A DNA stretch of 62,762 nt from a virus: positions 1 to 62,762 of IMG/VR virus record IMGVR_UViG_3300037091_000423. The stretch is one strand, 5' to 3'. Positions within the stretch are counted from its first letter, which is position 1. Each line of letters starts with the position of its first letter. Made by a program: the position numbers and the translations under genes. The notes below the pieces were generated by a model that saw nothing but the letters and a program-made list of their open reading frames with translations, had not been told where the DNA came from and did not search any database. Shown in pieces: positions 4,394 to 48,509 of this stretch.

Positions 4394-4960
4394 CTAATAA
4401 TCAATGCCTGGTTGTGGTTCTATACCTTTTCGCCAAGCGTGTTTTATTTCATTTACTTCGCTGACAGTATCGGCTAATTCAATAATTTGAGAATGAGCAT
4501 CTCGTCCTGTAAGAATTAAGTGAGTATCAATGGGCTTAGACTTGATAACGTTTATGACTTGCTCAAGATCTACTAGTTTCAATTTTAAAGCATTGTTTAT
4601 TTCATCAAGAATTACTACATCAAAAGCATTTAACTTTTCATGCACTAAATCAATAGCGTCTTGAGCATTGGCTCTATGTTCTTTCCATGAATAAGGATTA
4701 CCTTGTATGCCACAAAATCCTTTGCCTGTAGTATGTAATTCAACATTGGGTAAAAGCTTTAGGCTGTCCCATTCACCGGCATGAATATCGCCTTTCATGA
4801 ATTGAATCATACAGACACTTAAGCCATAACCTACTGATCTAAGAACAATCCCTAGTGCAGCTGTAGTTTTACCTTTGCCGTTTCCAGTTATGACTACGAT
4901 TAGTCCCTTTTTCGATTTGGGGCTTAAGTAATCTATTTTGGTTGGTGGGGTTCCTCTCAT
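4394..4960 (-). CDS. Cob(I)alamin adenosyltransferase-type P-loop protein (CobO/BtuR/CobA family)
   Basis: A 188-residue protein of typical length for the family. Walker A GNGKGKTT is at residues 26-33, followed by AALGIVLRSVGYG, VCMIQFMKG, LHTTGKGF and the acidic VVILDEINNAL motif. The family transfers adenosine from ATP to cobalamin to make adenosylcobalamin; in a phage it could feed B12-dependent host enzymes such as a class II ribonucleotide reductase (inference). Start ATG 4958-4960 has AAGGAT seven bases upstream. Family assignment is strong; actual substrate is not shown. Confidence 0.88.
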   Translation of the reverse strand: MRGTPPTKIDYLSPKSKKGLIVVITGNGKGKTTAALGIVLRSVGYGLSVCMIQFMKGDIHAGEWDSLKLLPNVELHTTGKGFCGIQGNPYSWKEHRANAQDAIDLVHEKLNAFDVVILDEINNALKLKLVDLEQVINVIKSKPIDTHLILTGRDAHSQIIELADTVSEVNEIKHAWRKGIEPQPGIDY

Positions 4961-7453: not shown

Positions 7454-7957
7454 CTAATAAATACGTCTATGAGTTCTTGTAGTCGTATTGCTGTAAGTTC
7501 TATTTCTATTGCCCAATAAAACAAAAACATCTTTTTTTTCTTCTGGATACTTATCTAGAGCTTTTTCTGATATTGCCCACTCAATGCCTAGCATTGCGCA
7601 TTCAATGCCTGGAGATTCATCTTTGAGTGTTCTAGAACCTAAAATAAATCTACTAAATTGCGCTGTGTCGACATAGCTCTTGGATTCTATGGCTAAGACT
7701 AATTTATCTTTATAATGAACATAAAGATCGAGATTATAGCTTTTGCCGTTCCGACTTTTGAGAAGAAAGTCTGAAAGATTTAGGCCTGATTGTCTAATTG
7801 CTATATAGATGATAGAATCAAAAAATTTCATTACAGCAGTGCCTCTAGCGTTTCTTTCCTTTGCCATTGATCTATAGCTTTCAAATTGCTTTAAGATTTT
7901 TGCAATATCAATGTTAGACTTTAGAAGCATTTCTAAATCAAAATCTCTAGCGTTCAT
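7454..7957 (-). CDS. PD-(D/E)XK nuclease-like protein, 167 aa
   Basis: LDLYVHYKDKLVLAIESKSY (about residues 75-95) has the Asp, then Glu-x-Lys layout of PD-(D/E)XK enzymes, followed by a helical region. A restriction- or repair-type nuclease is likely; target unknown. AGGAGATAAC precedes ATG 7955-7957. It is the next gene downstream of the Ro60 gene, beyond a terminator. Confidence 0.6.
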   Translation of the reverse strand: MNARDFDLEMLLKSNIDIAKILKQFESYRSMAKERNARGTAVMKFFDSIIYIAIRQSGLNLSDFLLKSRNGKSYNLDLYVHYKDKLVLAIESKSYVDTAQFSRFILGSRTLKDESPGIECAMLGIEWAISEKALDKYPEEKKDVFVLLGNRNRTYSNTTTRTHRRIY

Positions 7958-7995: not shown

Positions 7996-8015
7996 GCCCA
8001 CCCTTTCGGGTGGGC
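7996..8015 (-). terminator. Terminator after the Ro60 gene
   Basis: GCCCACCC / GGGTGGGC hairpin with a GAAA loop on the minus strand, followed by TTCTTT. It separates the Ro60 transcript from the nuclease gene. Confidence 0.75.
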
Positions 8016-8024
8016 CTGAAATGT

Positions 8025-9641
8025 TTAGAGAAGGTCTTTGGCCATTAACTGGATCATTTTTGGAGTTTCGCCGGTGAACCCTGCGATATCATAACTCTTT
8101 GGATCTTTTGGATCTACAAGAGAAATGTGATCACTGTAGGCCGTAAGTGTCGTATAGATCGCTTTTGCCTTGGGATTGATCTTCGACCTGTATTCCTTCA
8201 GAGCTTCAGCTGGGTGTCGATACCCGGCCCACGACTCCGAATCTGTAAAGAATACGAAGACGTCTGTCTTGATCCTGTTCTTGAGAGCATAGAGATAGGC
8301 TTGGGCCGCATCTGTTCCACCGAAGCCACCGTGCCAGAAATTCATTGAATCCCTGTAACCCATCTTCTTGGTGAACTTCGGAATCTCTACGAAGTTAGTG
8401 TTGAATCCGCCGACGAAGTAATTCTTCTCCGATCGGACAGAAGCTAACGCCATGACGCCTTCGACCTCGTATGGACTCATGTGCAATTGGCCAACGCTAT
8501 TCCCCAACATAGAGCTTGATATGTCGAGGGCATAGAAGAAATCAAGGCCAGTTGGTTCGAGAGCGTCGAAACACTTCTCAATACCGTCTTCCATGATATC
8601 CTTTACTCGAGCGATTGGTGACCATCTGAGCTTGCTCTTTCCGCCTTCGCCACCCATGCCGTAAATCTTCAGGGCAGATGCGAATACGATTGGGTGAATA
8701 TAGGCTTTTGCCAAATTCTCCTTCGAGAATCTTGCCTCAAGCAGATCTAGATTCGCCTTGTTCTTAAAGACATCCTTGTCAGTAAGGTTACCCAAGTTCC
8801 TGATAGTCGCGCCGACAGGCATCTGAAGGAAGAGGGCTTCCCAGATCTTATTGGTCATCTTTAGGTTACCAGGCATCATTTCCCAAGTCATCTTGAACCT
8901 CTGGATGGCGTCGATGACGTCGGTTTCACTTGCACCTTTCTTCAACTGCTCGTAAGCGTTGATTCGAGCAAGCTCGACCGGGAAGCTTTCCATTAGAGGA
9001 TTCTTCTTGGTGCCACCGATTACCCAGTTGAACACTGCTTTCTGCAGATCAGTCCTTGGGGTAGGCCTGACAGTTCGAAGGATGTCCTTTGCGCTCCAGT
9101 CATACCTACTCTGATACTTCAGGAACTGATACTCCAGCTCTTTGGCGTCCTTACCTGAAATCCAGTTTTCGACCGTCTTGTGGATCAGTGAACCCAATCC
9201 TCGCTCGTTCTTCGTGTAGTTGAAGAACTCATACAAGTGGCTGCCATTTCGGATGACGTTGGCAAACACTTCCTTGAAAACGTTCTTTGCCTTCATGTCT
9301 CCCATAGACAAATAGGTAAGAGCATAAATCGGCGTGTGAACAGAAATGCCCTTCTTTGAAGCGTCAAGAATCTCCTGTCCAACTCGCGCTGGATCTGAAG
9401 CGATGAGCTTCATAAGCAACTTCTTATTGCCGTCGGTCATTTCCTGTGCATTCTGGTAATACGCACCAGACATGCTACCTACAAGCAACCATCTTCGCAA
9501 GGCCTGCCACTCATCAGCTTTGAAGCTGAATCCGCCGGCTAGGTTTTGAGTCATCTCTGCTTCTCGACCTGGAATTGGCATTGACTGTGGTGTTCGAGTA
9601 GCTCGAACTTTGCTAGTAGACTTAGAATACGGTGCACTCAT
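8025..9641 (-). CDS. rsr: Ro60/Rsr orthologue: TROVE domain plus von Willebrand A domain, 538 aa
   Basis: Length and order match bacterial Ro60 (Rsr). The N-terminal about 360 residues are the helical TROVE ring (LRRWLLVGSMSGAYYQ near 49, TPIYALTYLSMGD near 103, FNWVIGG, GNLTD). The vWA domain has an intact MIDAS: DISSS at 373-377, Thr443 in GGTD, Asp467 in FFTD. Ro60 binds Y RNAs on its outer surface and the 3' ends of misfolded RNAs in its channel; in Deinococcus a Y RNA tethers it to PNPase. Strong ribosome site (GAAGGAGG) before ATG 9639-9641. The gene-free DNA upstream carries repeated Y-RNA-like elements on the same strand. Confidence 0.92.
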   Translation of the reverse strand: MSAPYSKSTSKVRATRTPQSMPIPGREAEMTQNLAGGFSFKADEWQALRRWLLVGSMSGAYYQNAQEMTDGNKKLLMKLIASDPARVGQEILDASKKGISVHTPIYALTYLSMGDMKAKNVFKEVFANVIRNGSHLYEFFNYTKNERGLGSLIHKTVENWISGKDAKELEYQFLKYQSRYDWSAKDILRTVRPTPRTDLQKAVFNWVIGGTKKNPLMESFPVELARINAYEQLKKGASETDVIDAIQRFKMTWEMMPGNLKMTNKIWEALFLQMPVGATIRNLGNLTDKDVFKNKANLDLLEARFSKENLAKAYIHPIVFASALKIYGMGGEGGKSKLRWSPIARVKDIMEDGIEKCFDALEPTGLDFFYALDISSSMLGNSVGQLHMSPYEVEGVMALASVRSEKNYFVGGFNTNFVEIPKFTKKMGYRDSMNFWHGGFGGTDAAQAYLYALKNRIKTDVFVFFTDSESWAGYRHPAEALKEYRSKINPKAKAIYTTLTAYSDHISLVDPKDPKSYDIAGFTGETPKMIQLMAKDLL

Positions 9642-9839
9642 GTGTTTCCTCCTTCAGTCCTATAATAGGACAAAAACTTTATTAGTCTCCCGACTAACTG
9701 TCGAGAAATCTTCTATTAAATAAGGTATATACGGCTTGGCTAACAACCATACTTATGCGCCCTTGTCCTTAGAGGTTAAGGTCCTTGGACTCAGGTGTGA
9801 AAAATGTAATACGTCTTTGCTTTGTTTATAGAAAAAGAT

Positions 9840-9904
9840 AGAGCAAGGATATGAAGAACGTATTTTTGTTACCATTTAACGATAACGTCCCTCTGTCAGC
9901 TCTT
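9840..9904 (-). ncRNA. Y-RNA-like element A
   Basis: Minus strand. Terminal helix AGAGC/GCTCT; 5' arm AGCTG, 11 nt, TTATCG; inner helix GGACGT/ACGTTC. Same layout as elements B, C, D and F but with a different terminal pair (G-C where others have A-T), so the pairing covaries. About 200 bases upstream of the Ro60 start, same strand. Confidence 0.68.
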
Positions 9905-9982
9905 GTGTGAACTCAGGATTAATCTTATCCTAAGTAAAAGGAGATACACATGAATCGCCACTGCAGATTCATGAAAAATAAA

Positions 9983-10041
9983 CAAAGCAAGGGAGTTAAA
10001 GAACTATGTCAAATTGCGATAAAGTCCTTCGAACAGCTTTG
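9983..10041 (-). ncRNA. Y-RNA-like element B
   Basis: Minus strand. Terminal helix CAAAGC/GCTTTG; 5' arm AGCTG, then TTCGAAGGACT, then TTATCG. The TGTTCGAAGG stretch resembles the 5' strand of the Ro60-binding helix of animal Y RNAs (TGGTCCGAAGG). 3' arm carries GTTCTTT and CTTGCTTTG. Confidence 0.65.
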
Positions 10042-10083
10042 AGTTAATCCAAACAATAAAAGAGATTGACTCAGCCCATTTGA

Positions 10084-10149
10084 TCAAAGCAAACTTGGTG
10101 AAGAACGTTTTTTGTTTGTATAACGGTAACGTCCTCCGGACAGCTTTGA
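10084..10149 (-). ncRNA. Y-RNA-like element C
   Basis: Minus strand. Terminal helix TCAAAGC/GCTTTGA (7 bp); 5' arm AGCTG, then TCCGGAGGACG, then TTACCG; inner helix GGACGTT/AACGTTC (7 bp with one G-U). This is the best-formed copy and the closest to the animal Y RNA Ro-binding strand. Confidence 0.7.
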
Positions 10150-10193
10150 ACAAATGGAGTGAATCTCGCTCCGGGGGAATCCTACTACAGCGT

Positions 10194-10302
10194 CTAGCAC
10201 TGTTTCAGATTCATTTCTGCCCATCCCCTCTTAAAAGAAGAGGGGCAGACTGGGCGAATAAAAAGAAGCAATAGTCTGAAAAAGGTAAGTCCCTATTGCT
10301 AG
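10194..10302 (-). ncRNA. Structured RNA G, divergent Y-like copy
   Basis: Nested helices: CTAGC/GCTAG, TTTCAGA/TCTGAAA, GCCCA/TGGGC and CCCCTCTT/AAGAGGGG. The 5' arm on the minus strand reads AGCAATAGGGACTTACC, a weaker match to the AGCTG...TTAYC pattern of the other copies. Orientation follows from that match; the long stem is new to this copy. Confidence 0.5.
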
Positions 10303-10379
10303 GGTTGTGGGCATCGAATCCCACTGAAACTAATTTTTAAGATTGGTTTGTTATCCGGTAACCTTTTCCATTCAGCTTC

Positions 10380-10961
10380 TTACTCATCTTTATATATGCT
10401 TTTACTTTTACCTTTGCTTTTGACAAAGGTTTTTATTTCTTCTATATTAATGTAATTGTCTAGGCTTATTAAACTTTCCTTCAAAGTACCAGAGTGTATA
10501 AGTCTATGACAATTTGGACAAATGTAAGTGATATTAGAGTATGAATTTTTGCCTCCATCACTTTTTGATTTTATGTGGTGGTAATCACCACGACCTTTAT
10601 TCCACCCACAAATAGAACAGCCCTTATTTAAGCGTTTTATTATTCTCTTGCCAATTATCAATGATATCTGATCTATTGAAGTAAAACTGTCATATCTCTC
10701 GTTGCGATGTTTAACGGCTGCTTTCGAAAGCTCTATTTTAGTTTCAATTGAAGTTGGCTTATGTCTAAAACCTTTTAGTCGTTTCCCCTCAAGTCTTTTC
10801 TTGTCTCCACATACTTTACAATATTTTCGAGAATTAAAAAGAAATAGATCTTTCTTGTGAATATTACTTCCGTCGGATCTAACAACCACTTGTATTTGTT
10901 CGTTGCAATCCAAACAATTTTTTGAAAGAATTGTTTTTTCTAAAAAAGTTTTTGGTCTCAT
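10380..10961 (-). CDS. HNH endonuclease inserted in the Y RNA array, 193 aa
   Basis: HNH core at about residues 118-165: CSICGWNKGRGDYHHIKSKS, then NITYICPNCHRLIH. An N-terminal zinc finger (CLDC ... CKVC) precedes it. A homing-type nuclease by family. It interrupts the RNA array between elements C/G and F/D and lacks a good ribosome site (TAAGTT before ATG 10959-10961). Confidence 0.85.
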   Translation of the reverse strand: MRPKTFLEKTILSKNCLDCNEQIQVVVRSDGSNIHKKDLFLFNSRKYCKVCGDKKRLEGKRLKGFRHKPTSIETKIELSKAAVKHRNERYDSFTSIDQISLIIGKRIIKRLNKGCSICGWNKGRGDYHHIKSKSDGGKNSYSNITYICPNCHRLIHSGTLKESLISLDNYINIEEIKTFVKSKGKSKSIYKDE

Positions 10962-11276
10962 AACTTATGAGTTTTCGTAAAAAAAGAAAGCTGATTTCAG
11001 ATTAAAAAGTCAGCTTCTCGTTTTTCAATGCCAAGTCCGCCTATTTTTACCATTAAATTTTATAGAAGCATTTTGTCTTCTATAAATATAAGGCTTCGTC
11101 TATTGAGTCATCCTTTCGCCTGCCATAATAATCATCTCTATTTATTAAACCAAATTAACTGTATTATTTCATCATTTAAGTGTAAGATGAAGCGCAGCTA
11201 CTTCTGGTCTCAACAGATATAGACTTACCAACCCTAAAAGTTTCAAAGAACAGAACCAGATAAAGGCCCTAAGGCC

Positions 11277-11299
11277 AAGGGGTCGTAATTCGTCCCCTT
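11277..11299 (-). other. Hairpin AAGGGG/CCCCTT
   Basis: Six-bp helix with an 11-base loop, beside a smaller AAGGCC/GGCC repeat. Part of the gene-free RNA region; no motif match to the Y elements. Confidence 0.4.
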
Positions 11300-11311
11300 C
11301 TGATTCTTGTG

Positions 11312-11351
11312 AAAAGTATGCCGCCAAGTCGCCGTTGATTCAGCGGCATAC
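11312..11351 (-). terminator. Terminator within the RNA region
   Basis: GTATGCCGC/GCGGCATAC, nine perfect base pairs, followed on the minus strand by TTTT. It would end transcripts of elements D and F before the HNH gene. Confidence 0.65.
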
Positions 11352-11434
11352 AACAAAAAATGCTAGCAAAAGGAAAATAGGATGAATTTCTTAGCGGGCA
11401 TTCATTAGTCAGTGCCATTGACTCCGTCAAGAAC

Positions 11435-11505
11435 CTAGCCTCCATGCCACTATAGCTATGGGGCCGCGATATTCAGTTTGTCGGTAATCACCCTAGAACA
11501 GCTAG
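11435..11505 (-). ncRNA. Y-RNA-like element F
   Basis: Minus strand. Terminal helix CTAGC/GCTAG; 5' arm AGCTG, then TTCTAGGGTGA, then TTACCG. The distal part folds on CCATAG/CTATAGTGG. The terminal pair differs again from A, B, C and D, supporting covariation. Confidence 0.6.
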
Positions 11506-11528
11506 ACTTTTCAGAACTAACGCTAAGA

Positions 11529-11546
11529 GAGGACTAATCAGTCCTC
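11529..11546. other. Hairpin GAGGACT/AGTCCTC
   Basis: Seven-bp perfect hairpin with a four-base loop between elements F and D. No T-run on either side in the right place, so RNA structure or protein site. Confidence 0.35.
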
Positions 11547-11640
11547 AAAAACTTGGTTTAGCTTGTAGTTTATATCACCTCCCTAAACAAGCAAGTTTTA
11601 ATAGCCTTTACAGCTTTAAGTATGTGCCTACTTAAGAATA

Positions 11641-11728
11641 ACTAAAGCAAGAAATAGCAAAAAATGATTCTTTGTTTCCAAAGACGTTCGATTGTGGTAA
11701 ACGGTAATTTCTCGCTGTCAGCTTTAGT
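11641..11728 (-). ncRNA. Y-RNA-like element D
   Basis: Minus strand. Terminal helix ACTAAAGC/GCTTTAGT (8 bp); 5' arm AGCTG, then ACAGCGAGAAA, then TTACCG; 3' arm AACGTCTTTGG ... CTTGCTTTAG. First copy to be transcribed if the array reads leftward toward Ro60. Confidence 0.66.
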
Positions 11729-11857
11729 CGTTTTTAAGTATGCGTTATATTAGTATCTTGAGCATATTTTGGAAAACTTGAGGAAATCTTCTATATTATT
11801 TAGAAGTATTTTGTAGAGAGCTGCAACCAAGATAAACCCCCTACAGGAGGCATATTT

Positions 11858-12802
11858 TTGATTATGAAAATACATACGTTTTTAGATGCCATAGTCCACT
11901 TCATGAATGGCCATCGCACGGGTCGCTTGAAGCAGGTCTGGGCTAAATTCCTCCAAACAAAGGTAAAGCTATCAGCAGTTCTCCTCATTATTGCATCCTC
12001 CACTGCAATCATAGCTTTTATCATTCTGTTTGGTAGCACTGCAATCGCAGGTGCGAAGTTTGATGCTGATAAAGAGGCTTTGCAAGTGCAAATAGCCGAT
12101 CAGAAAAACATCAACAAAGACTACAAAGATCAATACCAAAACGTTCTAAAACTCAAAAACGAGTTCCGATCTTCTATTAAAGACATTGTACAAATGCTCT
12201 ATAATAAGGATACTTATTTAGCCGTTGGTGGTTCGTCAATCAAAGTTGCTGATAGTGACGAAGCTGTATTGCTTCAGCTCCGCAGCGCTGTAGACACCAT
12301 GGGAGATGACCAAAAGTGGTTGGGCGAAGTAAAAGATTATTTAGTTGCTAGACAAGATTTCATTCAAAACTTCCCGTTTGTCTGGCCTACGCTTAAATCG
12401 GGAATACCCAGGATCACATCGGGATATGGTTTTAGACCGGATCCTTTTAATGAGAAAAAGCTCAGTTACCATGCTGGTATTGACATAGCTGGTAATCCAG
12501 ATGATCCTGTATTTGCTACCGCTGATGGCGTAGTAGTGGAAATAGGCACATGGGGCCCAGGACAAGAGGGGCAATCTTCTGATTATGGAAATTTCATCAC
12601 CGTAAGGCATAAATATAGCTTTGAAACAAGATACGCTCACTTAGACAAAGTATTAGTTACTATGGGCCAACACATTAAACGAGGAGATAAGATAGGACAA
12701 CTTGGTAATACGGGCATGGCTACTGGCTACCACTTGCACTATGAGATTCGCAAGGATGGTGTAGCTATTGACCCTATGTCGTTCTTAACCGTTAATTATT
12801 AG
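11858..12802 (+). CDS. Membrane-anchored M23 (LytM-type) peptidase, 314 aa
   Basis: One membrane segment at about residues 40-62, a coiled-coil stretch (about 70-125), then an M23 domain: SGYGFRPDP, YHAGIDIAG (zinc His and Asp), RYAHLDKV, and GYHLHYEIRKDG (catalytic and zinc His). M23 enzymes cut peptidoglycan cross-bridges; the anchor suggests action from the inner membrane into the periplasm in late infection or on entry. AGGAGG lies seven bases before TTG 11858; ATG 11864 is the alternative start. Plus strand, paired with the next gene. Confidence 0.85.
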   Translation: MIMKIHTFLDAIVHFMNGHRTGRLKQVWAKFLQTKVKLSAVLLIIASSTAIIAFIILFGSTAIAGAKFDADKEALQVQIADQKNINKDYKDQYQNVLKLKNEFRSSIKDIVQMLYNKDTYLAVGGSSIKVADSDEAVLLQLRSAVDTMGDDQKWLGEVKDYLVARQDFIQNFPFVWPTLKSGIPRITSGYGFRPDPFNEKKLSYHAGIDIAGNPDDPVFATADGVVVEIGTWGPGQEGQSSDYGNFITVRHKYSFETRYAHLDKVLVTMGQHIKRGDKIGQLGNTGMATGYHLHYEIRKDGVAIDPMSFLTVNY

Positions 12803-17084: not shown

Positions 17085-17392
17085 CCAGTGTCTTCACTTG
17101 GATCCCAAGTCCTAATAGCGCTACCATCTAGATAGTCACCAAAAAAATGTTTTATCAAATAACGACGGTCTTTCCACAAAGGCTCGAACTCTTGTGCTTG
17201 ATATGATTTGTAATGAATTCTTATTGGCCGATTTGTCAAGAGTTCTTTACCAATTAAAAAGTTGCCTTTAATTTCATCAATCTTAAAGAGCATTATCATT
17301 AGGGCTCGATGACTACGATCGTCGTGTTGTCTATAATAGGTTTTGCCTTTTATCCATTTGAATTTTTCAGAACCCCATGAGTCTAATGACAT
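17075..17392 (-). CDS. SH3-like protein, 105 aa
   Basis: FKWIKGKTYYRQHDDRSHRA then strands (LMIMLFKIDEIKGNFLIG): recurrent SH3-like pattern. Directly downstream of tRNA-Ser(GGA); AGGTAAC precedes ATG 17390-17392. Function unknown. Confidence 0.65.
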   Translation of the reverse strand: MSLDSWGSEKFKWIKGKTYYRQHDDRSHRALMIMLFKIDEIKGNFLIGKELLTNRPIRIHYKSYQAQEFEPLWKDRRYLIKHFFGDYLDGSAIRTWDPSEDTGWV

Positions 17393-18328: not shown

Positions 18329-18612
18329 TTGGGTGCTGGACCTATATCGTTATCGCTTATGAATATAGCATCTATTATGGTATGAAGCTCTTCTGGTTTA
18401 GCCGTATGTTTGTTGTCGATCAAACTTAAATGGCCCTTCTCAATTTTATACGTAAGGGAACCAGTTGGTTTATCGACCTCATATTTATATGAGTCTGATT
18501 TGAAAGTACAAGTAAATTCAATCGTTAAAACTTTACTCTTACCAGCTGAAATTTGAGCGTACATATAAGCTTTACTATATTTTGGCGTGACTGGTCGATA
18601 AACTATTTTCAT
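18325..18612 (-). CDS. Hypothetical protein, 95 aa
   Basis: Not recognised. Beta-rich throughout; C-terminal LHTIIDAIFISDND resembles the shared tail. ATGA overlaps on both sides. Confidence 0.62.
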   Translation of the reverse strand: MKIVYRPVTPKYSKAYMYAQISAGKSKVLTIEFTCTFKSDSYKYEVDKPTGSLTYKIEKGHLSLIDNKHTAKPEELHTIIDAIFISDNDIGPAPK

Positions 18613-23091: not shown

Positions 23092-23784
23092 TCAGTTGTA
23101 AGCATCGACTCCTGGTGTCAGTTGATTCTTGACCAATCTTTTGTATAGCCAATGATCGTCTTCTTCAAGCTGCTTCATGAACTCGGGTCGAACTAGTTTG
23201 CCCCTCATTTGTTTGACAGCATTCTTTACAACTATGCCTTCCATGGTCACAGTAGTTGAAACTTTTGAAGGCCCAATCAGTTTTTCCAATTGATGAAGAT
23301 GTTCGTTTTCATCGCCTTCAAGGCGACCGTAATAAAGCATTGGGACATGCTGAAGTTCTAGCTCGGAGCAAAGATCCAGTCTATCATTCGTGTCCAAATA
23401 TTCCTTGCCAGTCCAAACATCGAAGACCAAGAAATAAGATGGCAAGTGATCATAGAAAATATTGTGCTTGGCGTAGGTTAGCTCACCGTAGATGATCCAA
23501 TTTTCTGGAATGCTAAGAATCTTGTCCTCGTTGGCCCGAGCCCAGCTCCAGAAAAAAGAAAACTGAGGATGTTGCTGTGTTGCAATACCTCTCCTCTTCT
23601 GAAGTGTCCACTCGGAACCTTCACCACGAAGAATTGCCGTGTTAGCGCCATCAACTTTTTCAGTGATCTCAAGCGTCCCTCTGAGAAGCACTTTCTGATC
23701 TTTATCAGACAGCGTCAGTTTGCCTGGCACTCGGTAGTTGGGCGTAGTTATGCGGAATGTTTTTTCATAGCCGCGTAATGACAT
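23092..23784 (-). CDS. ATP-dependent RNA ligase (Rnl2/nucleotidyltransferase type), 230 aa
   Basis: Adenylation motif I KVDGAN at 43-48 (Lys43 nucleophile), motif III IIYGELT near 98-103, motif IV MEGIVVK at 181-187, motif V KLVRPEF near 196-202. Length fits the Rnl2-like small RNA ligases. Seals nicked RNA with ATP; in phages it repairs tRNAs cut by host anticodon nucleases. A DNA ligase role is less likely without an OB domain. Fits the RNA-centred gene set here. Confidence 0.85.
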   Translation of the reverse strand: MSLRGYEKTFRITTPNYRVPGKLTLSDKDQKVLLRGTLEITEKVDGANTAILRGEGSEWTLQKRRGIATQQHPQFSFFWSWARANEDKILSIPENWIIYGELTYAKHNIFYDHLPSYFLVFDVWTGKEYLDTNDRLDLCSELELQHVPMLYYGRLEGDENEHLHQLEKLIGPSKVSTTVTMEGIVVKNAVKQMRGKLVRPEFMKQLEEDDHWLYKRLVKNQLTPGVDAYN

Positions 23785-25623: not shown

Positions 25624-25654
25624 ATTAGCTCCTCAAATAAACTAGCAAGCAATG

Positions 25655-25778
25655 ATAAAAGCTGTGTCTTCCAATTGTGTGTCTGCCACATTCCACCACC
25701 GGGTAGCTTACGCTACGGGGGCAGGCTTCGAACCTGCAATATCAATTTCTCGATAATCTCTTATCGTCAGCTAGTCTT
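25655..25778 (-). ncRNA. YrlA-type Y RNA with circularly permuted tRNA-like module
   Basis: On the minus strand: 5' arm AGCTG, 11 nt, TTATCG as in the Ro60-linked elements; outer helix AGCTG/CAGCT; anticodon-like helix AATTG/CAATT; T-arm GCAGG TTCGAAG CCTGC; acceptor-like helix CCCCGTAGC/GCTACCCGG (two C-C mismatches) capped by a GTAA loop; then a Leu-type D-arm GTG GAATGTGGCAGA CAC. The T half precedes the D half, so the ends open at the anticodon side. Bacterial YrlA Y RNAs are known to carry such tRNA mimics. It follows tRNA-Leu(TAA) directly. Confidence 0.7.
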
Positions 25779-25863
25779 TACCGCAGGAGAGACTTGAACT
25801 CTCACGCCGTTTACACAGCAACGATTCTTAAGACCGTTGTGTCTGCCATTTCACCACTGCGGC
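25779..25863 (-). tRNA. tRNA-Leu(TAA) copy 1
   Basis: Acceptor GCCGCAG/CTGCGGT, anticodon arm ACGGT CTTAAGA ATCGT, long variable arm, T-arm GAGAG/CTCTC. Confidence 0.92.
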
Positions 25864-25864
25864 A

Positions 25865-35657: not shown

Positions 35658-35666
35658 GATTATCTT
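35658..35666 (-). promoter_or_regulatory. AAGATAATC start-site motif
   Basis: Two bases before ATG 35655; overlaps the last codon of the aminomutase gene. Confidence 0.48.
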
Positions 35667-36690
35667 ATTCTGCTGGATACTTAAACTTTTCACCTTCATA
35701 GTTCTTAAAGATCATATCATTGTTTTCTTGTCCGACGTAATATTCGGGCAATAAAGGAACTTTCCCACCGCCGTTTGGTAAATCTATAACAAATTGTGGA
35801 ACTGCGTATCCTGATATAAATCCTCGCAAGCCTTTAATAATGTCAAGGCCCGTCTTTACTGACGTCCTGAAGTGACTTGTACCTGCTGCTAAGTCTGCTT
35901 GATATATGTAGTATGGTCTAACTCGAATTGTCAATAGTTTCTTCATCAGTTTGCCCATTGTTTCTACATTGTCGTTGACGCCTTTTAACAAAACCGTTTG
36001 ACTTCCTAAAGGGATACCTACATCAGCTAATTTGTTGCAAGCCGACTTAACTTCTTCGGTGATCTCGTCTGGATGTGTAAAGTGAATACTCATATAAAGT
36101 GGATGGTATTTTTTAAGTATGTTTACAAGGATATCAGTAATTCTAGCTGGCATCACTACGGGAATTTTAGTTCCAATCCTTATAATTTCTAAGTGTTCAA
36201 TGTCCCTTAGATTTAACAGCAAGTATTCAAGTTTAGCATCTGATAATGTCAAAGGATCGCCGCCGCTTATTATAACGTCTCTAACTTCTTTATGTTGCTT
36301 TATATAGTTAATACCTTCATCCCAATCTGTTTTAGTAAAGCCGTCACTTTCTATCAAACGTGATCTTGTGCAATACCTACAATAGGTAGCACATCGGTCA
36401 GTAGCTAAGAACAACACACGGTCAGGATAACGGTGAACTATACACTTAACTGGTGAATCGTGCTCTTCACCAAGTGAGTCGTTCATTTCTTCGGGTTGAA
36501 TTATTGATTCTAGTTCTGATGGGATTACTGTTTTTTGTAGTTCTGGAGAATGTGAAATAACATCATGATAATATTGTGTCACGGCGAATGGCACTCTCAA
36601 ATTTTTCATTTCCGTGTTAATTAATCTATTTTGCAACTGCTTTTGCCACGAACTTGGGGGCTCCTCTTCTTTCTGAAGATCTTCGTTCAT
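35665..36690 (-). CDS. Lysine 2,3-aminomutase (KamA/EpmB-type radical SAM enzyme), 341 aa
   Basis: SAM cluster motif CATYCRYC (Cys100, 104, 107), SGGDPL, IRIGTKIPVVMPARIT, HFTHPDEIT, QTVLLKGVNDN, RVRPYYIYQADL, and GGGKVPLLPEY with the PLP lysine. Length is near E. coli EpmB (about 342) and shorter than clostridial KamA. Moves the alpha-amino group of lysine to the beta carbon; products serve EF-P modification or as osmolyte. No EF-P or EpmA gene is in the window. GAGGAATT before ATG. Confidence 0.92.
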   Translation of the reverse strand: MNEDLQKEEEPPSSWQKQLQNRLINTEMKNLRVPFAVTQYYHDVISHSPELQKTVIPSELESIIQPEEMNDSLGEEHDSPVKCIVHRYPDRVLFLATDRCATYCRYCTRSRLIESDGFTKTDWDEGINYIKQHKEVRDVIISGGDPLTLSDAKLEYLLLNLRDIEHLEIIRIGTKIPVVMPARITDILVNILKKYHPLYMSIHFTHPDEITEEVKSACNKLADVGIPLGSQTVLLKGVNDNVETMGKLMKKLLTIRVRPYYIYQADLAAGTSHFRTSVKTGLDIIKGLRGFISGYAVPQFVIDLPNGGGKVPLLPEYYVGQENNDMIFKNYEGEKFKYPAE

Positions 36691-38835: not shown

Positions 38836-40107
38836 CTAGTTCAATTCACAGGTCAAACATCTATCTAATTTTCTGGCTTTAGCGGAATTGATTATTGTGT
38901 AGTCAATATTATCTTGAAATATGTTGCCTATTTTACCCGGTGTCATACAACACGGATGAATATCTCCATTAGCTGCAACGAATGGAAAGTTTGGTTGGGC
39001 ACATTTATAGAAATCAGTTTTCTGAGGGATACCTATATGTCTAACGTTTGTGGCCATATATTTGATTTGATGTTTTTCAGCTATTTCTATAAATTCATTT
39101 ATGTCGTTTTTGTTAGTTTCTTGAACGACGGCTTTTATAGCAATATTCAATCTCATGCTTTTTGCTTTTAAAATGTTATCTAAAACCTTGTTAATTTTCT
39201 GACCAGTAATTTTGAAATAGTTCTTCTCGTTAAATGTATGGAGGGATATATAGATAACATCAGCATTAGAAATACTTTGCCAATCAATGTCCAAGTTGAA
39301 GTTCGTCGTTAAGTAGATTATAATTGCCCGTTTTTTCATTTCGTCAATCATACGCCAACAATCTTTGTGTATTAGAGATTCACCTCGACCCCAAAATTTT
39401 ACATGTAAAGGTTCAAGCTTATCAAGTATGAATTTGAAAGAGTCAAACGTTAAATCACTAGCAGGCGTGTCTCTTCTTGTACACATAACGCAATTACTAT
39501 TACATCTTGTAGTCGGCTCAATGTAGAAAGATCTTTCTGTGCAATAGAAGTATTCATTTTTCCAATACTTTTTAATGAGATTGAACTCTCTTATTTCATA
39601 ATTCATTGGTTGGCTATATATGAATCGTTCATACTTTTCGGGCACGTCAAATAGAATTTTATCTTCAGAATCAAAACATACATCCTCAGACATTTCACGA
39701 TCCATGATTTCATTTGACTTTAGTAGACCAAAGTGCGTCATATAATAACCATGCTTCTTTGCATCTTTAAGTAGTCTATCAAATCGATCGTGTGGCCCTA
39801 TCATTAGACAACTGAAAGCTGACATGTATTTTTTATCAACGCCATAAGCTTCAATCTTAAGTGAGTCTAAGTGACCCTTAATGAGAATACGTTTTTTGTC
39901 ACGTTCCAGGTATATATTGTTAGATTTGATCAAGGGCTTGAATTTTTTATAGGCGTTAAGATCGAATAGCTCTCTATTGAAAAGAATGTCTAAATCGCCT
40001 ATTTCAGACTCGCCTCTTCCATAGGATCCTAGTATTTGATAATTTGGGAGTATAGATAAGAAGTCTTTGTATTTTGTTATAATCTGGTCGCAAGTCTTAC
40101 GGTTCAT
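38836..40107 (-). CDS. PolX-like nucleotidyltransferase fused to radical SAM/SPASM domain, 423 aa
   Basis: Residues 1-170 carry the polymerase-beta signature GSYGRGESEIGDLDIL (27-42, Asp38 and Asp40), a third acidic residue in LKIEAYG (85), and an end (YYMTHFGLLKSNEI) like the PolX C-terminus. Residues 190-423 are a radical SAM enzyme: CNSNCVMC (Cys202, 206, 209), GRGESLIH, YISLHTF, then SPASM-type Cys at CAQP, HPCCM and CLTC. The order joins nucleotide transfer to radical chemistry in one chain. I know no such pairing; function cannot be assigned. Overlaps the upstream stop. Confidence 0.8.
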   Translation of the reverse strand: MNRKTCDQIITKYKDFLSILPNYQILGSYGRGESEIGDLDILFNRELFDLNAYKKFKPLIKSNNIYLERDKKRILIKGHLDSLKIEAYGVDKKYMSAFSCLMIGPHDRFDRLLKDAKKHGYYMTHFGLLKSNEIMDREMSEDVCFDSEDKILFDVPEKYERFIYSQPMNYEIREFNLIKKYWKNEYFYCTERSFYIEPTTRCNSNCVMCTRRDTPASDLTFDSFKFILDKLEPLHVKFWGRGESLIHKDCWRMIDEMKKRAIIIYLTTNFNLDIDWQSISNADVIYISLHTFNEKNYFKITGQKINKVLDNILKAKSMRLNIAIKAVVQETNKNDINEFIEIAEKHQIKYMATNVRHIGIPQKTDFYKCAQPNFPFVAANGDIHPCCMTPGKIGNIFQDNIDYTIINSAKARKLDRCLTCELN

Positions 40108-48260: not shown

Positions 48261-48270
48261 ATTTTTTCCT

Positions 48271-48344
48271 TGAGCTCGCCCGGACTCGAACCGGGAACCG
48301 GCAATTTAAAGGACTGCGACTCTACCGAATTGAGCTACGAGCCC
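48271..48344 (-). tRNA. tRNA-Lys(TTT) copy 1
   Basis: Acceptor GGGCTCG/CGAGCTC, anticodon arm GCAGT CCTTTAA ATTGC (C33), T-arm CCCGG/CCGGG. Confidence 0.88.
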
Positions 48345-48400
48345 GCTAGAAATTTAGTATTAATCAAGTGTTTAATTCTTGACACAGCAGATCGTGCCAT
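48335..48400 (-). CDS. Possible 21-aa peptide ending in tRNA-Lys
   Basis: AAAGGAGG nine bases before ATG 48398-48400; MARSAVSRIKHLINTKFLAGS, with TAG inside the tRNA D-arm. The strong ribosome site is the main support; length is short. Confidence 0.35.
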   Translation of the reverse strand: MARSAVSRIKHLINTKFLAGS

Positions 48401-48431
48401 TAGTAGGGTCCTCCTTTTATATTAAATTTTA

Positions 48432-48506
48432 TGAGCTCGCCCGGATTTGAACCGGGAATTGTCCAGATTAAGAGTCTGGTGCCATACCGGGTTAGGCGAC
48501 GAGCCC
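48432..48506 (-). tRNA. tRNA-Lys(CTT)
   Basis: Acceptor GGGCTCG/CGAGCTC, anticodon arm CCAGA CTCTTAA TCTGG, T-arm CCCGG/CCGGG. Confidence 0.92.
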
Positions 48507-48509
48507 AAG

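What the first reader, a model, noticed from the sequence alone, without database searches (positions are those of the whole stretch)
8025..11728. Phage Ro60 gene with an upstream array of Y-RNA-like elements
Five elements in the gene-free DNA upstream of the TROVE/vWA gene (9840, 9983, 10084, 11435, 11641) share AGCTG, exactly 11 nt, then TTACCG or TTATCG on the minus strand. Each is closed by a terminal helix whose sequence differs but still pairs: AGAGC/GCTCT, CAAAGC/GCTTTG, TCAAAGC/GCTTTGA, CTAGC/GCTAG, ACTAAAGC/GCTTTAGT. That is covariation seen directly. Elements B and C have TTCGAAGG or TCCGGAGG after AGCTG, close to the Ro60-binding strand of animal Y RNAs. Ro60 orthologues are known to be encoded beside Y RNAs in bacteria. 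A phage with one Ro60 and a multi-copy array is unusual.
Basis: partly seen in the sequence, partly recalled or inferred. Interest (0 to 1): 0.93.

Follow-up and report, generated by a model that had tools for sequence, protein, structure and literature searches.

The report
Phage Ro60 with three Y-RNA architectures
An uncultured phage carries its own copy of the Ro60 protein, known in humans as an autoimmune target, together with at least eight small RNAs predicted to bind it, some built from tRNAs, including one in which the Ro60-binding arm takes the place of a tRNA's anticodon loop.

Summary
The finding is real and larger than described. The gene is a true Ro60 (TROVE plus vWA; human Ro60 E = 4e-59). 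The motif AGCTG-N11-TTAYCG occurs 8 times in the window, all on the Ro60 strand (0.02 expected). D's closing arm was misplaced. One array element (F) and two distant ones in the tRNA cluster (G, H) were missed.

A covariance model from window and relatives shows compensatory change at 13 of 15 pairs and finds 75 elements, all on the Ro60 strand, in 20 viral records (up to 11 per contig), with none in 685 kb of control DNA. The arm has the vertebrate Y-RNA Ro60-site letters: [C/U]GA hinge, CUU opposite, UUAUC 13 nt downstream.

Three architectures coexist: minimal hairpins (A, B, C, E); YrlA-like RNAs enclosing a circularly permuted tRNA (G; reduced in F); and the reverse permutation, a tRNA with open acceptor whose anticodon loop is replaced by the Ro60 arm (H). 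H scores E = 6e-13 against a model trained without it, mostly on cyanobacterial Ro60 loci, where this form is the norm. Binding and expression are inferred.

The parts
8025..9641 (-). Ro60 gene (538 aa, TROVE + Ro60 vWA domain)
   Evidence: PF25045 3.8e-32, PF05731 1.8e-19; human Ro60 4e-59. The metal-site residues D373-x-S375-x-S377, T443, D467 and the residues aligned to Xenopus K170 and R174 (here K175, R179) are invariant in nine Ro60s; that K170/R174 contact Y RNA is from memory.
7996..8015 (-). Terminator-like hairpin after ro60 (GCCCACCC GAAA GGGTGGGC, then TTCTTT)
   Evidence: sequence
9648..9671 (-). Ro60 leader hairpin GTCCTA TTA TAGGAC followed by UGAAGGAGG (hinge-like letters plus ribosome-binding site)
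   Evidence: stem letters change but pair in L024 and L028; 67 of 80 cyanobacterial leaders have a similar hairpin
9840..9903 (-). Element A, minimal Y hairpin (64 nt)
   Evidence: R2 56.7 bits
9983..10041 (-). Element B, minimal Y hairpin (59 nt)
   Evidence: R2 46.7 bits
10084..10149 (-). Element C, minimal Y hairpin (66 nt)
   Evidence: R2 49.7 bits
10263..10381 (-).
   Evidence: z = -3.5; R2 46.1 bits
10380..10961 (-). HNH endonuclease gene lying between F and D
   Evidence: PF01844 1e-9
11363..11505 (-). Element D, redrawn: Y arm enclosing a ~100-nt domain that is not tRNA-like
   Evidence: same arm in L028 3878-4031; not reported by R2 at E <= 0.05, so the weakest of the eight
11640..11729 (-). 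Element E, Y hairpin (90 nt, 9-bp closing stem)
   Evidence: (z = -5.2); R2 48 bits
25639..25777 (-). Element G: Y arm enclosing a circularly permuted tRNA-like module (T-arm, GTAA-capped acceptor halves, Leu-type D-arm), one base after a tRNA-Leu gene
   Evidence: R2 30.5 bits
43039..43175 (-). Element H: tRNA body with open 7-bp acceptor; anticodon loop replaced by a capped Ro60 arm (reverse permutation of G)
   Evidence: R3, trained without it, 60.8 bits, E = 6.3e-13; only intron-mode ARAGORN call in the window at 20-120 nt; arm verified

Best explanation
The locus encodes a phage Ro ribonucleoprotein system: one Ro60 protein plus at least eight small RNAs that share a Ro60-binding arm. The arm is a stem of 3 to 9 pairs ending in a C-G pair, a [C/U]GA hinge opposite CUU, a stem of about 8-10 pairs, and UUAYCG at its far end. 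Shown computationally: the arm exists, is conserved through compensatory change, is linked to Ro60 genes on the same strand, and carries the letters of the vertebrate Ro60 site. Also shown: it is mounted as a bare hairpin (A, B, C, E), as a hairpin enclosing a circularly permuted tRNA (G; reduced in F), and as an arm in place of a tRNA's anticodon loop (H). Inferred: the array and ro60 form one minus-strand transcription unit from about 11.8 to 8.0 kb. Each RNA docks on the outside of the Ro60 ring through the arm. Bare hairpins act as gates or competitors that regulate what Ro60 can bind. tRNA-bearing RNAs tether Ro60 to tRNA-handling enzymes, or serve as decoys for anticodon nucleases. Ro60 may also bind the arm-like hairpin over its own ribosome-binding site and limit its own synthesis. 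The RNP would serve RNA quality control or tRNA protection in a phage with about 20 tRNA genes and an RNA ligase.
For: Ro60 identity. Eight motif copies on one strand, 0.02 expected. Pairing beyond shuffled search. Covariation at 13 of 15 pairs. 75 elements, all on the Ro60 strand, in 20 viral records, none in 685 kb of control loci. Vertebrate Y-RNA letters in register. Permuted tRNA modules against shuffles. H found by an independent model, with acceptor covariation across 24 such RNAs. Leader hairpin. RNA ligase and tRNA genes in the window.
Against: No transcript or binding data. Copies within the window are paralogues. Rfam calls none of the eight a Y RNA; YrlA fits G only at 12.4 bits against a cut-off of 69. 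Element D is weak. The tRNA-like module of G has acceptor mismatches and fails the strict descriptor. No PNPase partner was identified. The functional steps (gating, tethering, decoy, autoregulation) rest on analogy.
Confidence: 0.83

Rival explanations
1. The hairpins are processing, stability or attenuation hairpins of a long tRNA transcript, unrelated to Ro60; the neighbouring Ro60 gene is a coincidence.
For: Several elements sit 2-5 nt from tRNA genes, and G lies one base after a tRNA-Leu gene.
Against: The densest arrays lie directly upstream of Ro60 on its strand in many diverged viruses. Single-stranded hinge and UUAYCG letters are conserved while stems vary, which is unlike processing hairpins. 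The letters match the vertebrate Ro60 site. None in control DNA, nor in tRNA-bearing phage P100.
Confidence: 0.07
2. H is a real tRNA-Leu(AAG) gene with a small spliced intron, not a Y RNA.
For: Taking the 62-nt insert out leaves a canonical 7-nt anticodon loop CUAAGGA.
Against: The insert contains every feature of the Ro60 arm, in register. The same kind of insert, with varied tRNA bodies and formal anticodons, recurs upstream of Ro60 in cyanobacteria and viruses. It resembles no bacterial tRNA intron class known to me. A Leu tRNA with a short variable loop would be abnormal.
Confidence: 0.05
3. The elements are Ro60-bound RNAs, but the short hairpins are decayed remnants of YrlA-type RNAs spread by recombination in the array and have no separate role.
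For: The HNH gene inside the array and the mix of full (G), reduced (F) and bare (A, B, C, E) forms fit decay and turnover.
Against: Bare hairpins keep both stems, hinge and UUAYCG across phages whose Ro60s are only 60-67% identical to the window's, and give the highest R2 scores, so they are under selection.
Confidence: 0.12

Closest known systems
Bacterial YrlA Y RNA (Rfam RF02553; Salmonella, Mycobacterium; RYPER with PNPase)
   Same: Ro60-binding stem at the ends, loop holding T-arm, capped acceptor and D-arm in that order (G, and many relatives); encoded beside Ro60. Rfam YrlA aligns G in the same order.
   Different: Far below the Rfam cut-off; several copies per phage; minimal hairpins without the tRNA part; UUAYCG, absent from the Rfam consensus printed; and the reverse permutation in H.
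Vertebrate Y RNAs / nematode sbRNAs (RF00019)
   Same: Hinge CGA, CUU on the other strand, UUAUC 13 nt from the hinge.
   Different: Phage RNAs lack the La-binding Pol III end, are shorter or carry tRNA modules, and do not match the Rfam Y_RNA model.
tRNA (RF00005)
   Same: H has acceptor, D, anticodon and T stems; Rfam labels some cyanobacterial relatives plain tRNA.
   Different: The anticodon loop is replaced by a Ro60 arm of about 60 nt.
Y RNA / Ro60 systems of cultured phages (mycobacteriophages, Vibrio phage BONAISHI)
   Same: Phage-encoded Ro60, 341 INPHARED records. BONAISHI has two R2 elements upstream of Ro60; HyRo has an R3 match just upstream.
   Different: At most 31% protein identity to the window; no arrays of this kind in the four cultured phages tested.

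Membership tests
Ro60 / TROVE protein | TROVE domain followed by vWA domain, full length | tested here: met
Ro60 / TROVE protein | Conserved vWA metal site and RNA-contact residues | tested here: met
   D373/S375/S377/T443/D467 and K175/R179 invariant in alignment; their roles are from memory
Y RNA (Ro60-bound noncoding RNA) | Binds Ro60 | not testable with these tools
   no binding data
Y RNA (Ro60-bound noncoding RNA) | Lower stem with bulged pyrimidine and asymmetric bulge opposite, conserved letters | tested here: met
   [C/U]GA hinge, CUU opposite, covarying stems; reference description PMC4726728
Y RNA (Ro60-bound noncoding RNA) | Genetic linkage to Ro60 | tested here: met
   75 elements all on the Ro60 strand; controls empty
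YrlA (RF02553) | Rfam score above gathering cut-off | tested here: not met
   G 12.4 bits against 69; others none
YrlA (RF02553) | Ro60 stem open, tRNA-like module in T-arm, capped acceptor, D-arm order | tested here: met
   G, and many relatives; F reduced; A, B, C, E lack the module; H has the reverse topology
Vertebrate Y RNA (RF00019) | Match to Rfam Y_RNA | tested here: not met
tRNA (RF00005) | Acceptor, D, anticodon and T arms with an anticodon loop | tested here: not met
   H has all stems, but its anticodon loop is interrupted by the Ro60 arm; it has a tRNA body but is not a decoding tRNA as read

The most novel reading that the evidence does not exclude
Y RNAs exist in two circularly permuted forms of one tRNA-plus-Ro60-arm chimera: the known YrlA form (arm open, acceptor capped) and an unrecognised form (acceptor open like a true tRNA, arm capped in place of the anticodon loop). 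The second form is the norm in cyanobacteria and occurs beside the first in this phage. The tRNA mimicry of bacterial Y RNAs would then come from insertion of a Ro60-binding arm into tRNA anticodon loops followed by permutation in tandem arrays, and the CGA/CUU/UUAUC arm would be shared from phages and bacteria to vertebrates.
Probability: 0.55. Interest if true: 0.93.

Novelty: new variant of a known kind. Interest (0 to 1): 0.86.

Why it matters
Ro60 and Y RNAs are major human autoantigens, yet the origin of Y RNAs and of bacterial tRNA mimicry is unsettled. This locus links animal-type arm letters, minimal hairpins and real tRNA bodies in one phage. It predicts which RNAs bind Ro60, including a class in cyanobacteria that can be tested at once in ordinary laboratory strains. 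It also shows that viruses multiply and diversify Y RNAs, which points to a role in RNA or tRNA control during infection, and it suggests that Ro60 may regulate its own mRNA.

Tried and rejected
Rfam at threshold and at relaxed E: only tRNAs, plus a sub-threshold YrlA alignment for G. The plus-strand motif at 18335 has no pairing partner. A viral-wide scan for the permuted motif gave 30 stretches, of which only H (and its copy on the same phage) keeps the arm; a candidate in G012 at 17144 had no tRNA body. A second ARAGORN intron call in the window (48270-48507, seen only with a 150-nt limit) is a false join of two tRNA-Lys genes. Model R2 misses most cyanobacterial RNAs because their Ro60 stem is capped, so model R3 was built. 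Listeria phage P100, whose relative was proposed to have Y RNAs (PMC12282133), has no R2 match. Whole cyanobacterial genomes searched with R2 gave nothing, uninformative for the same reason. Primary papers on YrlA (Chen 2014; Sim 2018, 2020) are not in the library, so whether the tRNA-topology form has been noted before could not be checked at source; Rfam has no model that names it.
Full report
WHAT IS THERE. The gene at 8025-9641 (minus) is a full-length Ro60. It has a TROVE and a Ro60-type vWA domain and matches human Ro60 at 4e-59, Xenopus at 4e-58 and Deinococcus Rsr at 5e-49 (the species names of the last two are from memory of the PDB entries). The same phage appears, identical over the compared stretch, in two other metagenome contigs. 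Ro60 at 61-67% identity occurs in two further viral contigs (L024, L028), and at 41-48% in L025-L029 and in cyanobacteria and their plasmids. In a tree the window's viral group is sister to the cyanobacterial proteins plus viral L029 (support 100/100 for the joint group).

THE OBSERVATION. AGCTG-N11-TTAYCG occurs 8 times in 62.8 kb, all on the Ro60 strand, with 0.02 expected. D does not close at 11435; its partner lies at 11363-11367. F (10381-10263) was missed, and G (25777-25639) and H (43175-43039) lie in the tRNA cluster. Repeating the partner search on 200 shuffled downstream sequences never reached the observed pairing for A to G, so the helices are not an artefact of looking.

COVARIATION. 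Nineteen elements from the window and relatives align in register. Stem 1 and stem 2 have compensatory changes at 13 of 15 pairs. Double-sided changes number 83 against 24.8 in shuffles, the covariation score is 0.818 against 0.212, and slid registers collapse. A model (R1) finds further untrained elements upstream of Ro60, nearly all on the Ro60 strand. The refined model R2 finds 75 elements in 20 viral records, all on the Ro60 strand, up to 11 per contig. It finds none at E <= 1 in 685 kb of other phage DNA, most of which was fetched because it contains the bare motif. Caveat: later alignments are fitted to the model, and E-values are rough.

LINK TO ANIMAL Y RNAs. The arm has a [C/U]GA hinge (64 of 78 elements by a strict position rule), CUU-G on the other strand (58 of 78), and UUAYC (68 of 78, 2.7 in shuffles), mostly 13 or 14 nt after the hinge. 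Human Y1 and Y4 read CGA, then UUAUC at exactly 13 nt (reads listed in PMC5839159; identified as Y1 and Y4 from memory), and rat Y1 ends GCACTTGACTAG (PMC3928194). UUAUC is described as a conserved motif of nematode sbRNAs and vertebrate Y RNAs (PMC4726728; PMC4450293). [quoted passage not shown]

THREE ARCHITECTURES. (1) Minimal hairpins of 59-90 nt (A, B, C, E). (2) Longer hairpins whose loop holds a domain. In many relatives it is a circularly permuted tRNA: variable loop, T-arm, acceptor 3' half, short loop, acceptor 5' half, D-arm. ARAGORN run on doubled inner sequences calls a tRNA in 8 of 29, against 0 of 620 shuffles; a strict descriptor fits 13 of 31, against 0.5% of shuffles. G reads this way with a Leu-type D-arm but fails the strict descriptor because of acceptor mismatches. 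F keeps only the T-arm and a GCAA hairpin. D's domain is not tRNA-like. This is the YrlA order; Rfam YrlA aligns G in the same order but far below threshold. In tandem arrays some R2 matches may join arms of neighbouring units, so individual boundaries there are provisional. (3) H is the reverse permutation: a complete tRNA body whose anticodon loop is replaced by the Ro60 arm with its outer stem capped. ARAGORN in intron mode (20-120 nt) reports a single candidate in the whole window, and it is H.

CYANOBACTERIA HAVE FORM 3. Intron-mode ARAGORN over 161 Ro60 loci, the window included, gives 216 calls, every one on the Ro60 strand (174 cyanobacterial, 40 viral, 2 in the window, of which one is a false join). 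In 130 the capped arm was verified, mostly with GNRA caps. A locus with one copy (L283 2811-2934) rules out mispairing between neighbours. In an alignment of 24 such RNAs all seven acceptor pairs covary and are 100% paired. Model R3, built without the window, finds H at 60.8 bits, E = 6e-13, its top hit in the window; ordinary tRNAs reach 43 bits at most.

HOW IT MAY WORK (inferred). The array, the leader and ro60 appear to be one minus-strand unit between the divergent M23-peptidase gene at 11858 and a terminator-like hairpin after ro60. In Deinococcus a Y RNA tethers Ro60 to PNPase for structured-RNA decay (PMC7790460), and in YrlA the tRNA-like domain is described as the effector end (PMC8394870). 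By analogy, bare hairpins can only occupy or gate Ro60, while tRNA-bearing RNAs can tether it to tRNA-handling enzymes or act as decoys for anticodon nucleases, an idea already raised for YrlA. An RNA ligase gene and about 20 tRNA genes in the window fit a tRNA-maintenance role. The Ro60 leader itself carries a capped hairpin followed by UGAAGGAGG; the stem letters change but still pair in the two nearest relatives, and similar leaders occur in 67 of 80 cyanobacterial loci. This suggests Ro60 may repress its own translation; in the window the leader fold alone is not significant (z = -1.2).

NOVELTY. Phage Ro60 genes are well known (341 INPHARED records), and bacterial and phage Y RNAs with tRNA mimicry are described in the literature. 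What seems new is the multi-copy, mixed-architecture arrays, the minimal hairpins, the animal-type arm letters in register, and above all the tRNA-topology form. The primary YrlA papers could not be read here, so prior notice of that form cannot be excluded.

Noticed in passing
L250-L329 (cyanobacterial Ro60 loci), e.g. L283 2811-2934: Cyanobacterial Ro60 genes are preceded by 1-4 tRNA-like RNAs whose anticodon loop is replaced by a GNRA-capped Ro60 arm; some encode CCA. Rfam labels a few as plain tRNA, none as Y RNA.
   Followed up: yes
window 9648-9676; L024, L028; L258, L264, L282 and others: The Ro60 mRNA leader carries a capped hairpin followed by UGA/CGG letters over the ribosome-binding site, resembling the Ro60 arm; a possible autoregulatory site.
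   Followed up: partly
L229 403-704; window 25639-25864: Y elements wedged 1-5 nt between tRNA genes (e.g. tRNA-Gly, Y, tRNA-Pro, Y), suggesting joint processing from one transcript.
   Followed up: no
W01 (mycobacteriophage HyRo NC_028869) 127904-128063; W02 (Streptomyces phage SparkleGoddess) 80873-81028: R3 matches of about 160 nt, the first directly upstream of HyRo Ro60: possible tRNA-topology Y RNAs in cultured phages.
   Followed up: no
window 23092-23784: RNA ligase gene (PF09414, 3e-30) in the tRNA cluster.
   Followed up: no
window 7454-7957: 167-aa gene after ro60 with no Pfam match; its IESKSYVDTAQF stretch looks like a restriction-type nuclease core by eye.
   Followed up: no
window 4394-4960, 35665-36690, 38836-40107: Unusual phage cargo: corrinoid adenosyltransferase (CobO), lysine-2,3-aminomutase-like radical SAM, and a second radical SAM gene.
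   Followed up: no
window 10985-11020 and 11314-11353: Two more strong hairpins in the array region: AAGCTGA...TCAGCTT followed by T-rich sequence (terminator-like, minus strand), and GTATGCCGC...GCGGCATAC; role unknown.
   Followed up: no
L030 3979-4751; L089; L046: Further viral loci with several intron-mode tRNA calls near Ro60, only some verified as arm-bearing.
   Followed up: partly
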